Of a stretch of 64,000 nt of DNA, positions 32,907 to 39,218 are shown piece by piece. The notes beneath the pieces are model-generated. The model made no database searches. It saw only the letters and a list, made by a program, of their open reading frames with translations, and had not been told where the DNA came from. The stretch spans positions 62,001 through 126,000 of the forward strand of contig NZ_FOHB01000007.1 of assembly GCF_900111375.1 (NCBI RefSeq). The letters are read 5' to 3'. The position numbers were made by a program, and so were the translations under genes. The stretch's first letter is position 1. Each line of letters starts with the position of its first letter. The DNA comes from Pedococcus cremeus (GTDB lineage Bacteria > Actinomycetota > Actinomycetes > Actinomycetales > Dermatophilaceae).

Positions 32907-34613
32907 GTGACGACAGGCGACCGGGACCTCACCCCGCTGGCGCCGCTGGGTCTCGGGCGGCTGCGGTCCGGACCGGTGCGGGAGCGCCGCCCGGTGTACG
33001 TCGACCTGCTGCCGCCCTGCAACGCCGGCTGTCCGGCCGGGGAGAACATCCAGGGCTGGCTCGCCCTGGTGCGGGCCGGGGACCACGAGGGCGCCTGGCG
33101 GCTGCTCACCGCCGACAACCCGCTCCCCGCCGTGCACGGCCGCGTCTGCTACCACCCGTGCGAACGCGTGTGCAACCGCGCGGAGCTCGACAGCGCCATC
33201 TCGATCCACGGCGTCGAGCGGTTCCTCGGCGACCTCGCCATCGAGCGCGGCTGGCAGCTCACCCCGCCGGAGCGGTCGTCCGGTCGCCGGGTGCTGGTCG
33301 TCGGCTCCGGGCCCAGCGGGCTCTCGGCCGCCTACCACCTCGCCCGTCTCGGGCACGAGGTCGTCGTGCGCGACAACGGCCCGGCCCCCGGCGGGATGAT
33401 GCGCTACGGCATCCCGTCGTACCGGTTGCCGCGGGAGGTGCTCGACGCCGAGATCGGGCGGATCGCCGCCCTGGGCGTGGTCTTCGAGCAGGACCACCGG
33501 GTCACCGACCTCGCCGCCGAGATGCGCGACGGAGGCTTCGACGCGGTGTTCGTGGCGGTGGGCGCCCACCTGTCGAAGCGGGTCGACATCCCCAACGAGG
33601 ACGCCAGCCGGGTCATCGACGCCGTCTCGTTCCTGCGCGAGGTCGAGTCGGGGGAGCAGGGCGCGCTCACGAACCGCCACGTGGCCGTCTACGGCGGCGG
33701 CAACACCGCCATGGACGCCGCCCGCGTCGCGCGTCGGCTCGGCGCCGAGGACACCGTCATCGTCTACCGCCGAACCCGCGCCCAGATGCCGGCCCACGAG
33801 GAAGAGGCGGTCGACGCCGAGCGCGAGGGCATCCGCATCAACTGGCTGCGCACCATCAGCTCGATGAACGAGCACGAGCTGACCGTCGAGGTCCAGGCCC
33901 TCGACGAGCACGGCCGGCCGCACGGCACCGGCCACTTCGAGAAGCTCGCCGCCGACACGGTGATCCTCGCCGTCGGACAGGAGAGCGACACCGGCTTCCT
34001 GCGGTCCGTGCCCGGGGTGCAGCTCGACGGCGACACCGTGCAGGTCGACCCCGTGACCCTCATGACGGGCGCGGCCGGTGTCTTCGCGGGCGGTGACGCC
34101 GTGCCGAGTGAGCGGACCGTGACGGTCGGTGTGGGGCACGGCAAGAAGGCGGCCCGCAGCATCGACGCCTGGCTGGCAGGCCGGGAGCACGCGCCCGCGC
34201 CGAAGCACCCGATGGCCGACTTCGGGAAGCTCAACCTCTGGTACTTCGGTGACCACAGCCGCCGCGAGCAGGCCGAGCTGGACCCGGCCGAGCGGGTGCA
34301 CGCCTTCGTCGAGGTGACCGCCGGGCTCACCCCGCAGGAGGTCGCCTACGAGGCGGGCCGGTGCCTGTCGTGCGGCAACTGCTTCGAGTGCGACGGCTGC
34401 CTCGGGGCGTGCCCGGAGGACGCGGTCATCAAGCTGGGCACCGGCCACCGCTACCGCTTCGACTACACCGCCTGCACCGGCTGCGGCACCTGCTACCGGC
34501 AGTGCCCGGTGCACGCCATCGAGATGGTGGCCGAGGAGAGCGCGGCCGTCCCGGACACCGACCCGTATGCCGCGGGCGACCGAGGCGTCCTCGGCGCCAC
34601 CGAGGGGAGCTGA
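32907..34613 (+). CDS. GltD-like NAD(P)H oxidoreductase with C-terminal 2[4Fe-4S] domain
   Basis: This 568-aa protein begins with a GltD-type N-terminal iron-sulfur domain (CNAGCPAGENIQGW, CYHPCERVCNRAELD). Two Rossmann domains follow for FAD (VLVVGSGPSGLSAAYHLARLG) and NAD(P) (VAVYGGGNTAMDAARVARRLG). It ends with two ferredoxin clusters (CLSCGNCFECDGCLGACPEDA, CTGCGTCYRQCP). This architecture moves electrons between NAD(P)H and ferredoxin. It leads the PFOR operon, one base from the next gene, so it probably recycles the ferredoxin reduced by PFOR. The GTG start has a perfect AGGAGG 6 bases upstream. Confidence 0.88.
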   Translation: MTTGDRDLTPLAPLGLGRLRSGPVRERRPVYVDLLPPCNAGCPAGENIQGWLALVRAGDHEGAWRLLTADNPLPAVHGRVCYHPCERVCNRAELDSAISIHGVERFLGDLAIERGWQLTPPERSSGRRVLVVGSGPSGLSAAYHLARLGHEVVVRDNGPAPGGMMRYGIPSYRLPREVLDAEIGRIAALGVVFEQDHRVTDLAAEMRDGGFDAVFVAVGAHLSKRVDIPNEDASRVIDAVSFLREVESGEQGALTNRHVAVYGGGNTAMDAARVARRLGAEDTVIVYRRTRAQMPAHEEEAVDAEREGIRINWLRTISSMNEHELTVEVQALDEHGRPHGTGHFEKLAADTVILAVGQESDTGFLRSVPGVQLDGDTVQVDPVTLMTGAAGVFAGGDAVPSERTVTVGVGHGKKAARSIDAWLAGREHAPAPKHPMADFGKLNLWYFGDHSRREQAELDPAERVHAFVEVTAGLTPQEVAYEAGRCLSCGNCFECDGCLGACPEDAVIKLGTGHRYRFDYTACTGCGTCYRQCPVHAIEMVAEESAAVPDTDPYAAGDRGVLGATEGS

Positions 34614-34614
34614 C

Positions 34615-38190: not shown

Positions 38191-39218
38191 TGGACCTCTC
38201 CACGACCTACCTCGGCCTGCGGCTGCGCAACCCGCTCGTCGCCTCGGCGTCGCCGATGACCCGCAGTGTCAACGGGATCCGCAAGCTGGCCGCAGCGGGC
38301 ATCGGTGCCGTGGTGCTGCCGTCGCTCTTCGAGGAGCAGCTGCGCAAGGAGCAGGACCGCGACGACGCCCTCGCCGAGGGTGGCTCGGAGGCCTTCAGCG
38401 AGGCGCTGACGTACTTCCCCACCGGGTACAGCGGGCTGCCGGGTCGCCCCCAGCGCTACCTCGACCTCGTCGAGCGGGCCGCCGGCGTCGTGGACGTGCC
38501 GGTCATCGCCAGCCTCAACGGGAGCACGGCCGGTGGCTGGGAGGACTTCGCGCGCTCGCTGCAGGAGGCCGGCGCGGCCGCCATCGAGGTCAACGTCTAC
38601 TTCGTGCCGGGCGACCCGCACGTGACCGGCCGGGAGGTCGAGGAGACGCACGTCGCGATCCTGCAGCGGGTGCGCTCGGTCGTCTCCATCCCGGTGGCGG
38701 TCAAGCTCAGCCCGCACTTCAGCTCGCCCGGGCAGATGGCGTTGCGGCTCGACGACGCCGGCGCCGACGGGCTCGTGCTCTTCAACCGGTTCCAGCAGCC
38801 CGACATCGACGTCGAGACCCTCGCAGTGCACCCCGCGACTGGCCTGTCCCGGCCGGCCGACGCGCAGCTCCCGCGGACTTGGATCGCCATCCTGCGCGGC
38901 CACGTCGTGTGCTCCCTCGCGGCCACGACCGGCGTCGACGAGTGGGACGACGTCGTCAAGTACCTGCTCTCGGGCGCCGACGTCGTGATGACCGCCTCGG
39001 CCCTCATGCGCCACGGCGTCGACCACGTGCGCGTCCTGCTCGACGGCCTGCAGGAGTGGATGGCCCGCAAGGGCTTCACGTCGCTGGACGAGGTGCGCGG
39101 CCTGCTCGCCGTGCCCCGCGGCGTGGACGCCACGGCATACGAGCGGGCGGGGTACGTGAGCGCGCTGGAACGGGCGCGCGGCACGTACGGCGACCTCCGG
39201 GTCGGTGTGCACCAGTAG
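38190..39218 (+). CDS. Dihydroorotate dehydrogenase-like FMN protein
   Basis: This 342-aa TIM-barrel protein resembles class 1 dihydroorotate dehydrogenases (LRNPLVASASPMTRSVNGIR, VIASLNGSTAGGWEDFAR, AIEVNVYFVPGDP, VAVKLSPHFSSPGQM). The start overlaps the nifJ stop by one base (TGATG), so it is cotranslated with PFOR. Genes like this are commonly attached to nifJ operons and are thought not to serve pyrimidine synthesis. True PyrD function is unlikely here, given the lack of other pyr genes. The actual substrate is unknown; a redox role with ferredoxin is inference. Confidence 0.85.
   Translation: MDLSTTYLGLRLRNPLVASASPMTRSVNGIRKLAAAGIGAVVLPSLFEEQLRKEQDRDDALAEGGSEAFSEALTYFPTGYSGLPGRPQRYLDLVERAAGVVDVPVIASLNGSTAGGWEDFARSLQEAGAAAIEVNVYFVPGDPHVTGREVEETHVAILQRVRSVVSIPVAVKLSPHFSSPGQMALRLDDAGADGLVLFNRFQQPDIDVETLAVHPATGLSRPADAQLPRTWIAILRGHVVCSLAATTGVDEWDDVVKYLLSGADVVMTASALMRHGVDHVRVLLDGLQEWMARKGFTSLDEVRGLLAVPRGVDATAYERAGYVSALERARGTYGDLRVGVHQ

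What the first reader, a model, noticed from the sequence alone, without database searches (positions are those of the whole stretch)
32907..39218. PFOR operon with GltD-like electron carrier and DHOD-like protein
A single-chain pyruvate:ferredoxin oxidoreductase is cotranscribed with an NAD(P)H/ferredoxin-type oxidoreductase and a dihydroorotate dehydrogenase-like protein (gaps of +1 and -1 bases). PFOR is oxygen-sensitive and uncommon in aerobic actinobacteria. The set could form an NAD(P)H-linked route for pyruvate oxidation under low oxygen; the DHOD-like member's substrate is unknown.
Basis: partly seen in the sequence, partly recalled or inferred. Interest (0 to 1): 0.6.

Follow-up and report, generated by a model that had tools for sequence, protein, structure and literature searches.

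The report
NADP-linked low-oxygen pyruvate oxidation operon
An actinobacterium carries a three-gene operon that probably oxidises pyruvate and passes the electrons to NADP+ when oxygen runs low; the operon was already noticed in propionibacteria, but its third protein, an enzyme look-alike that follows this pyruvate oxidase in bacteria of many phyla, still has no known job.

Summary
32907-39218 holds three tightly packed genes: a GltD-like FAD/NAD(P)H/Fe-S protein (32907-34613), an intact single-chain PFOR (34615-38190) and a DHOD-like FMN-barrel protein (38190-39218). It is not a new system: McCubbin et al. 2020 (PMC7650540) described this operon as co-transcribed in Propionibacterium and postulated a bifurcating complex. 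What I add: (1) the DHOD-like gene lies directly behind PFOR in 75 of 80 named loci from many phyla, whereas the GltD-like gene marks one PFOR clade (42 of 42 rows, one branch); (2) the DHOD-like protein lacks the catalytic Cys of class 1 dihydroorotate dehydrogenases in 52 of 52 sequences, has no conserved Fe-S ligands and does not resemble quinone-type DHODs, which argues against the published quinol proposal; (3) the GltD-like protein has ligands for about four [4Fe-4S] clusters and an NADP(H)-type site; (4) the genome has a DevR/DosR orthologue, and a DosR-like box is enriched upstream of this operon across the bacterial family, though the window's own box is weak; (5) in a 149-genome sample, the DHOD-like gene accompanies PFOR mainly in genomes with a haem-copper oxidase. 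Best reading: a hypoxia-induced NADP+-linked PFOR. The role of the DHOD-like protein is unproven.

The parts
32907..34613 (+). Gene 1: GltD-like NAD(P)H/FAD/Fe-S oxidoreductase, 568 aa (NF009410/PRK12771)
   Evidence: 763.1 bits vs cut-off 516; Fer4_20, Pyr_redox_2 and C-terminal Fer4 domains; 15 Cys invariant in 21 of 21
33018..33173 (+). Gene 1 residues 38-89: N-terminal cysteines C38, C42, C81, C85, C89 (Fer4_20 part)
34362..34505 (+). Gene 1 residues 486-533: C-terminal cysteine region; C486/C489 look like the two ligands missing from the N-terminus, then a PorD-like 2[4Fe-4S] domain
   Evidence: TIGR02179 hit 491-544, 43.8 bits, below its cut-off 60.05; profile 455-502 aligns with NfnL 12-57
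34615..38190 (+). Single-chain pyruvate:ferredoxin oxidoreductase (NifJ), 1191 aa from GTG 34615
   Evidence: TIGR02176 1692.4 bits vs cut-off 911.35; alignment over nearly the whole length with solved PFORs
38190..39218 (+). DHOD-like FMN-barrel protein, 342 aa (NF005741/PRK07565)
   Evidence: 443.5 bits vs cut-off 303; model closest to the FMN domain of dihydropyrimidine dehydrogenase, Z 30.6
38601..38603 (+). Codon 138 of gene 3 (Phe) at the column of the catalytic Cys135 of PyrDB
   Evidence: no Cys in 52 of 52 sequences (that C135 is the catalytic residue is recalled)
32807..32820 (+). Candidate DosR/DevR-type box GTGACGAAGGACCC (2 mismatches to GGGACNWWNGTCCC), start 100 bases upstream of gene 1, in the divergent intergenic region
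   Evidence: identical 14-mer in the sister species locus L048; weak on its own
30853..32733 (-). Divergent neighbour: Na+/H+ exchanger with C-terminal zf-UBP (start at 32733 assumed); marks the 5' limit of the operon region

Best explanation
The operon encodes an NADP+-linked PFOR module used when oxygen is short. PFOR converts pyruvate and CoA to acetyl-CoA, CO2 and two low-potential electrons that leave through its [4Fe-4S] chain (catalytic machinery shown by sequence; activity inferred). Gene 1 takes these electrons, directly or via ferredoxin, on its C-terminal 2[4Fe-4S] domain and passes them over its other clusters to FAD and then NADP+ (cofactor sites shown by sequence; direction, partner and cosubstrate inferred). 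The pair would thus do with a GltD-type reductase what pyruvate:NADP+ oxidoreductase does with a fused reductase, and would spare the cell a separate ferredoxin-NADP reductase. Gene 3 is a non-DHOD FMN-barrel protein that serves PFOR itself rather than gene 1, because it accompanies PFOR across phyla with or without gene 1; the likeliest roles are an FMN electron outlet docked on PFOR or a factor that lets PFOR work in oxygen-respiring cells (inferred). In this family transcription is probably raised by the DosR/DevR system (inferred from motif and orthologue).
For: Three genes nearly touching, with good ribosome sites. All over curated family cut-offs. PFOR aligns over nearly its whole length with solved PFORs. 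Gene 1: FAD/NAD(P) fold; best solved relatives are 9bov, 9n5u ('NfnA'), 8oh5 and NfnI/NfnL 5jca (that 9bov and 8oh5 are NfnABC- and StnABC-type transhydrogenases is recalled). Fifteen Cys and E104 are invariant in 21 of 21, enough for four [4Fe-4S] clusters; Y287 is invariant, R288 in 19 and R289 in 20 of 21, the NADP(H)-type YRR motif (the meaning of YRR and of E104 as a ligand is recalled). Gene 3 directly behind PFOR in 75 of 80 named loci; GltD-linked PFORs are one side of a branch with 100% SH-aLRT, 42 of 42 (quick tree, no bootstrap). Phylum sample: PFOR over cut-off in 39, gene 3 in 28, both in 21 of 149. DevR orthologue: 255.6 bits to M. tuberculosis DevR vs 147.8 for the next protein, with a 1-mismatch box before its start. 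DosR-like box upstream of the operon: 43 summed mismatches over 18 family loci vs at least 65 for each of 19 permuted controls. The genome also has aceE and narG, so PFOR is a second pyruvate route in a facultative respirer. Published: co-transcription and co-regulation in Propionibacterium, nifJ1 knockout crippled growth (PMC7650540 section 3.4.3, read whole); in Synechocystis nifJ and the DHOD-annotated sll0744 are both listed as transiently up in microoxic cells (PMC11368403, passages).
Against: No biochemistry of gene 1 or gene 3 was found in the papers I searched. The structure model of gene 1 is poor where it matters (most of the C-terminal region below pLDDT 50), so the cluster arrangement rests on alignment, and the key stretch aligns weakly (14.3 bits, i-Evalue 0.097). 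The window's own DosR-like box has two mismatches; with an unrestricted core 9 of 19 permuted controls do as well, and such sites are not enriched in the window as a whole (5 found, 9.95 expected). Outside the family there is no enrichment (14 other Actinomycetota 58 vs 53.0 for controls). Gene 3 is not over the cut-off in 18 of 39 PFOR genomes of the sample, so PFOR does not need it in general. In a Bacteroides record gene 3 stands with no nifJ within 6 kb (L178).
Confidence: 0.5

Rival explanations
1. Energy-conserving bifurcating or confurcating complex (McCubbin et al. 2020): PFOR, an NfnB-like gene 1 and an NfnA-like gene 3 couple ferredoxin, NAD(P)H and quinol.
For: Gene 1 is nearest to NfnL and other Nfn/Stn-type subunits, which belong to bifurcating transhydrogenases (recalled). 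The authors report co-transcription, co-regulation and a growth defect of the PFOR knockout.
Against: Gene 3 is not NfnA/PyrK-like: its only Pfam match is DHO_dh, with no FAD or [2Fe-2S] domain, and only one column has Cys in 30% or more of 52 rows. It is not quinone-type: 25.5 bits to class 2 DHOD (TIGR01036) against 84.5-88.9 to class 1B and PreA, and it aligns from class 2 profile position 47 on, so the N-terminal quinone-site helices (recalled) are absent. Of the 54 named loci with gene 3, PFOR and enough flank to judge, 28 lack gene 1, so a three-part bifurcator cannot be the general role of gene 3.
Confidence: 0.15
2. Gene 3 is an oxygen-related helper of PFOR (protection, repair or a safe electron outlet), and gene 1 is a separate NADPH:ferredoxin reductase.
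For: Among 39 PFOR genomes, gene 3 is present in 16 of 19 with a haem-copper oxidase and in 5 of 20 without (Fisher p 3e-4); by family 9 of 10 vs 2 of 6 (p 0.036). Cyanobacteria have the pair, and PFOR is said to be able to work under aerobic conditions there (statement in PMC11368403). The window's PFOR lacks the C-terminal extension of the PFOR 1b0p (aligned only to residue 1170 of 1231); that 1b0p is from D. africanus and the extension its oxygen shield is recalled.
Against: Small sample with related genomes; in family f9, without haem-copper oxidase, 4 of 8 PFOR genomes have gene 3, and so has G203 of f36. The 14 control genomes have PFOR over cut-off in 4 but gene 3 in only 2, so at least two of them manage without it.
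Confidence: 0.25
3. Genes 1 and 3 together form a dihydropyrimidine-dehydrogenase-like oxidoreductase for an unknown small molecule and share the operon with PFOR only as a source of electrons.
For: Together they carry the kinds of domain found in DPD: Fer4_20, FAD/NAD(P)H, FMN barrel and a dicluster ferredoxin domain (DPD layout recalled). The gene 3 model is closest to the DPD FMN domain (Z 30.6, rmsd 2.8 over 271 residues; DHODs up to 27.0).
Against: The catalytic Cys is missing in 52 of 52. Gene 3 occurs behind PFOR without gene 1 in many phyla.
Confidence: 0.08

Closest known systems
Propionibacterium PFOR operon (McCubbin et al. 2020, PMC7650540)
   Same: Same three annotated genes around PFOR: glutamate synthase small chain-like, PFOR, DHOD-like; co-transcribed there. 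Loci of Propionibacteriaceae fall in the same PFOR clade.
   Different: Their mechanism (quinol, NfnA-like third subunit) does not fit the sequence of gene 3. No DosR-like box in the 5 Propionibacteriaceae loci examined (best sites 4-5 mismatches).
Pyruvate:NADP+ oxidoreductase (PNO) of Euglena and Cryptosporidium (recalled)
   Same: PFOR chemistry linked to NADP+.
   Different: PNO is a fusion with a P450-reductase-type domain (recalled); here the reductase is a separate GltD-type Fe-S flavoprotein.
Phenylglyoxylate:NAD+ oxidoreductase (Pad) (recalled; NF045764 and NF045766 hit the PFOR far below their cut-offs)
   Same: A 2-oxoacid oxidoreductase working with a pyridine-nucleotide reductase subunit.
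   Different: Different substrate and multi-subunit make-up; not compared subunit by subunit here.
NfnAB / StnABC-type transhydrogenases
   Same: Gene 1 is homologous to NfnL and to the GltD module of 9bov, 9n5u and 8oh5, including the RCLxC stretch behind the GltD fold in the latter three.
   Different: No NfnA/PyrK-like partner among the three operon genes; gene 1 has its own PorD-like 2[4Fe-4S] end.
Synechocystis nifJ operon, sll0741 with sll0743 and sll0744 (PMC11368403)
   Same: nifJ and a DHOD-annotated gene, listed together (apparently as unit TU3296) among genes transiently up in microoxic cells.
   Different: No GltD-like gene in the passage seen.

Membership tests
Single-chain PFOR (NifJ, TIGR02176) | Score over curated cut-off, full length | tested here: met
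   1692.4 vs 911.35 bits, model 2-1166 of 1167
Single-chain PFOR (NifJ, TIGR02176) | TPP domains and Cys ligands of three [4Fe-4S] clusters | tested here: met
   POR_N, POR, PFOR_II, EKR, TPP_enzyme_C domains; CIQCGTCSFVCP and CTGCGLCVEACP, plus CAGC, TGCSS and SHC for the proximal cluster, read in the sequence (assignment to clusters recalled)
Single-chain PFOR (NifJ, TIGR02176) | Pyruvate oxidation with ferredoxin or flavodoxin | not testable with these tools
   needs enzyme assay
PRK12771 NAD(P)-binding protein (NF009410) | Score over curated cut-off | tested here: met
   763.1 vs 516 bits
DHOD-like protein (NF005741/PRK07565) | Score over curated cut-off | tested here: met
   443.5 vs 303 bits
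Dihydroorotate dehydrogenase (class 1 or 2) | Catalytic Cys (class 1) or Ser (class 2) in the active-site loop | tested here: not met
   0 of 52 have Cys at the PyrDB C135 column; 2 of 52 have Ser; the window has Phe
Dihydroorotate dehydrogenase (class 1 or 2) | Score over a DHOD model's cut-off | tested here: not met
   TIGR01037 84.5 vs 270; NF005574 87.3 vs 269; TIGR01036 25.5 vs 200
Dihydropyrimidine dehydrogenase (PreTA/DPD) | PreA model cut-off and catalytic Cys | tested here: not met
   NF006183 88.9 vs 335 bits; Cys absent; same fold, Z 30.6
NfnAB bifurcating transhydrogenase | NfnA (PyrK-like FAD/[2Fe-2S]) subunit beside the GltD-like subunit | tested here: not met
   None among the three operon genes; elsewhere in the genome not searched
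NfnAB bifurcating transhydrogenase | Electron bifurcation at the FAD | not testable with these tools
   needs spectroscopy or assay
Pyruvate:NADP+ oxidoreductase (PNO) | PFOR fused to a P450-reductase-type domain | tested here: not met
   No flavodoxin or reductase domain among the Pfam matches of the PFOR chain
DosR/DevR regulon | DevR orthologue in the genome | tested here: met
   237-aa protein of L185, 255.6 bits to M. tuberculosis DevR (3c3w), next 147.8
DosR/DevR regulon | DosR-type box upstream of this operon | tested here: inconclusive
   Window: 2 mismatches, weak alone. Across 18 family loci clearly enriched (43 summed mismatches vs at least 65 for each control)

The most novel reading that the evidence does not exclude
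The DHOD-like protein is a widespread, overlooked accessory of PFOR: an FMN protein without DHOD chemistry that lets PFOR work in bacteria that also respire oxygen. In one PFOR clade a GltD-type Fe-S flavoprotein turned this pair into an NADP+-linked pyruvate oxidase, which in Dermatophilaceae-type actinobacteria became part of the DosR hypoxia response.
Probability: 0.3. Interest if true: 0.72.

Novelty: new member of a known kind. Interest (0 to 1): 0.45.

Why it matters
PFOR is a textbook anaerobe enzyme, yet it is found in many oxygen-respiring bacteria, and I found no work on what its frequent neighbour does. The data here turn that into direct tests: delete or purify the DHOD-like protein, ask whether gene 1 makes the oxidase NADP+-linked, and ask whether DevR switches the operon on. 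A yes would help explain how aerobic actinobacteria run PFOR, which bears on fermentative wastewater members of the Dermatophilaceae that have been credited with Por-type enzymes (PMC9123174, passages).

Tried and rejected
Rejected: gene 3 as a true DHOD (catalytic Cys absent; the genome also has a second, weak NF005741 match on contig C14, 41.9 bits, that may be its PyrD and was not identified further). Rejected: FNR-, CRP- or Rex-type boxes upstream of the operon (simple exact patterns, 0 of 41 upstream regions). Rejected as a natural GltD-PFOR fusion: the 1,690-aa PFOR-like protein of L172 carries POR, Fer4 and TPP domains but no GltD part (one of four fetched was scanned). Led nowhere: the gene 1 structure model (mean pLDDT 70), not used for a fold search; papers joining PFOR and DosR, or nifJ and DosR (2 and 1 hits; of these only PMC11876180 was opened, where the one match is in a reference title; the other two were seen as listings); a paper on phenylglyoxylate oxidoreductase with a glutamate-synthase-like subunit (none). 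PFOR with Actinobacteria and hypoxia: five listings, none on the subject by title and abstract start. PMC10434189 (one passage) lists nifJ and a different, bifunctional DHOD B/GltD gene. Not tried: prediction of the complex (the tool does single chains), searches for PFORs without gene 3 outside Actinomycetota.

The 20 family loci were chosen by me from the places over the cut-off. The PFOR tree used 81 rows of over 1000 aa among 84 found. Alignment A2 holds 52 of the 77 full-length gene 3 rows of window and named loci; A3 holds the window and 20 of the 26 named loci with gene 1, the rest not being full length by my test. The motif tables use 38 of 41 upstream regions: one was too short and two were duplicates; several of the 18 family loci are close relatives, so they are not independent, and the coding-window control used 16 of the 18. 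In one search three weak COX1 matches (E 9.7e-4, 9.9e-8, 2.0e-7) were counted as absent; one of them, G216, has PFOR. One search did not list 42 genomes without a match; they were counted as lacking COX1. My gene calls in the DosR-site loci come from a simple script, and one of the six perfect sites (L165) lies between two convergent gene ends, not in a promoter.
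Full report
What is there. Gene 1 (32907-34613) scores 763.1 bits with NF009410, PFOR (34615-38190) 1692.4 bits with TIGR02176 and gene 3 (38190-39218) 443.5 bits with NF005741, all far over the curated cut-offs. Gaps are +1 and -1 bases and each start has a ribosome site, so one transcript is very likely (sequence; not measured). The 5' neighbour is a divergent Na+/H+ exchanger and the 3' neighbour a convergent DUF6512 gene; neither points to the pathway. Its family code includes genomes whose PFOR is identical to those of Humibacillus xanthopallidus and Austwickia chelonae, so it is Dermatophilaceae/Intrasporangiaceae.

The PFOR. It aligns over nearly its whole length with the solved enzymes 6cin and 1b0p (Moorella and Desulfovibrio africanus, recalled), keeps all domains and the cysteine motifs of three [4Fe-4S] clusters, and stops where the C-terminal extension of 1b0p begins (aligned to residue 1170 of 1231). 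The genome also has the aerobic route (aceE, 1411.1 bits) and a nitrate reductase (narG, 1683.5 bits), so this is a second pyruvate route in a facultative respirer.

Gene 1. Its core is a GltD/NfnL-type FAD and NAD(P)H module. Fifteen cysteines are invariant in 21 of 21 sequences (window and 20 named loci), five at the N-terminus and ten at the C-terminus, plus E104 at the place of the NfnL LERF glutamate. The N-terminus lacks the first Cys pair that NfnL has; the profile stretch 455-502, with C486 and C489, aligns with the N-terminal stretch 12-57 of NfnL (weakly: 14.3 bits, i-Evalue 0.097), and the relatives 9bov, 8oh5 and 9n5u have the same stretch behind the GltD fold. I read this as two ligands supplied from the C-terminus, followed by a PorD-like 2[4Fe-4S] domain (TIGR02179, E 2e-11, 43.8 bits against a cut-off of 60.05): four clusters in all. 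This is inference; the AlphaFold model is poor there. The YRR motif in the nucleotide domain (R288 in 19, R289 in 20 of 21) is the NADP(H) type (recalled), so NADP(H) is likelier than NAD(H).

Gene 3. The model is confident (mean pLDDT 88.6) and closest to the FMN domain of dihydropyrimidine dehydrogenase (Z 30.6, rmsd 2.8, 271 residues), then to DHODs (Z up to 27.0). The Lys aligned with PyrDB K164 is invariant (52 of 52), but the column of the catalytic Cys has no Cys in 52 of 52 (24 Tyr, 15 Phe, 2 Ser and others). S45, F47, E48 and E49 (motif SLFEE) are invariant and have no explanation yet. Only one column has Cys in 30% or more of the rows, so there are no conserved Fe-S ligands. It scores like class 1B DHOD and PreA (84.5-88.9 bits) and poorly with class 2 DHOD (25.5 bits), and all these fall short of their cut-offs. 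On this evidence it is neither a DHOD nor a quinone-type enzyme.

Who has it. In this bacterial family PFOR is over the cut-off in 34 of 119 genomes. Of 20 PFOR places that I fetched, 16 have all three genes in order, 3 have PFOR and gene 3 only, and 1 has PFOR alone. Among 80 named loci found with a gene 3 profile, 75 have PFOR directly upstream of gene 3; of these 26 also have gene 1, 28 have room and no gene 1, and 21 are cut off too near to tell. The 5 without PFOR are L119, L122, L145, L159 and L162. The loci span Actinomycetota, Cyanobacteriota, Bacteroidota, Verrucomicrobiota, Pseudomonadota, Planctomycetota, Acidobacteriota and others. In a PFOR tree of 81 rows the 42 GltD-linked PFORs are one side of a branch with 100% SH-aLRT; 32 without gene 1 and 7 unknown are on the other side (quick tree, no bootstrap). 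So gene 3 goes with PFOR in many lineages and gene 1 with one PFOR clade. That clade includes Rhodobacter capsulatus, and a conjugative plasmid of Phenylobacterium zucineum carries the three genes.

Co-occurrence. In a phylum-wide sample of 149 genomes PFOR is over the cut-off in 39 and gene 3 in 28, both in 21 (Fisher p 1e-9). Six of the seven other gene 3 genomes show partial PFOR matches; G160 does not. PFOR without gene 3 over the cut-off occurs in 18 genomes, two of which (G191, G242) have a gene 3 in pieces or below the cut-off. Among the 39 PFOR genomes, gene 3 is present in 16 of 19 with a haem-copper oxidase and in 5 of 20 without; by family 9 of 10 against 2 of 6. The sample is small and its genomes are related, so this is a lead.

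Regulation. The palindrome GGGACNWWNGTCCC occurs 6 times in the genome, against 0 for the reversed control. Two of the sites lie shortly upstream of a NarK-type transporter (195.9 bits, below its cut-off 311.7) and of a wax ester/diacylglycerol acyltransferase; one lies between convergent gene ends and can hardly be a promoter site (L165). With one mismatch allowed there are 51 against 20, among them sites before a DevR orthologue (255.6 bits to M. tuberculosis DevR; next protein 147.8) with a divergent GAF-domain protein, before a universal stress protein, an S30AE ribosome-hibernation-type protein and a flavodoxin-domain protein (9 one-mismatch loci looked at). That such genes are typical DosR targets is recalled. 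Upstream of the PFOR operon, 18 family loci sum to 43 mismatches against 68.3 on average and 65 at least for 19 permuted half-sites; 200-base windows of gene 1 itself (16 loci) give 3.9-4.4 per locus against 2.4 upstream. Fourteen other Actinomycetota (58 vs 53.0 for controls) and six loci of other phyla (24 vs 24.1) show no enrichment. The window's own site, GTGACGAAGGACCC at 32807-32820, has two mismatches, is identical in the sister species, and alone is weak. So control by DevR is well supported for the family and only plausible for this copy.

Prior work. McCubbin et al. 2020 (PMC7650540; passages, section 3.4.3 whole) describe the same three genes in Propionibacterium, co-transcribed and regulated alike; a CRISPR knockout of the PFOR crippled growth. 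They postulate a bifurcating complex with an NfnB-like and an NfnA-like, quinol-oxidising subunit. Gene 3's sequence does not fit the last part. In Synechocystis, nifJ (sll0741), sll0743 and sll0744 (annotated DHOD) stand together, apparently as unit TU3296, in a table of genes transiently up in microoxic cells (PMC11368403, passages). I therefore file the finding as a new member of a known, uncharacterised kind.

Mechanism. Best reading: pyruvate + CoA + NADP+ to acetyl-CoA + CO2 + NADPH by PFOR with gene 1, downhill by well over 100 mV (recalled potentials), with gene 3 as an FMN partner of PFOR whose function is open. Shown by sequence: catalytic and cofactor sites, gene order, clade structure, family motif. 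Inferred: electron path, cosubstrate, complex, induction in hypoxia.

Noticed in passing
L170-L173 and (G006, G020, G056, G088, G090, G094): A PFOR-like protein of about 1,690 aa; the one scanned (L172) has POR_N, PFOR_II, POR, Fer4 and TPP domains, scores far below the PFOR cut-off (391.5 vs 911.35 bits) and passes no other cut-off in the list shown.
   Followed up: partly
own genome, L164-L169 and L179-L187: A DosR/DevR-type regulon: DevR orthologue beside a divergent GAF-domain protein; boxes before a NarK-type transporter, WS/DGAT, universal stress protein, S30AE protein and flavodoxin-domain protein.
   Followed up: partly
L042, L043, L053: A second PFOR type (57-58% identical to the window's) in the same family, followed by gene 3 but without gene 1.
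   Followed up: partly
L178 (Bacteroides finegoldii plasmid record): Gene 3 homologue (36.6% identical) with no nifJ within 6 kb, directly behind a YggS-family gene.
   Followed up: no
L177 (Phenylobacterium zucineum conjugative plasmid): The complete three-gene set on a conjugative plasmid, behind an alcohol dehydrogenase gene.
   Followed up: no
29984-29997: GGGTCTTCGGTCCC, a near match to the DosR-type palindrome, about 30 bases before the assumed start of a metallo-beta-lactamase-fold gene (30026-30877).
   Followed up: no
30853-32733: Na+/H+ exchanger with a C-terminal zf-UBP zinc finger.
   Followed up: no
L039: Genes 1 and 3 each appear as two overlapping pieces in this draft genome, which may be sequencing errors.
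   Followed up: no
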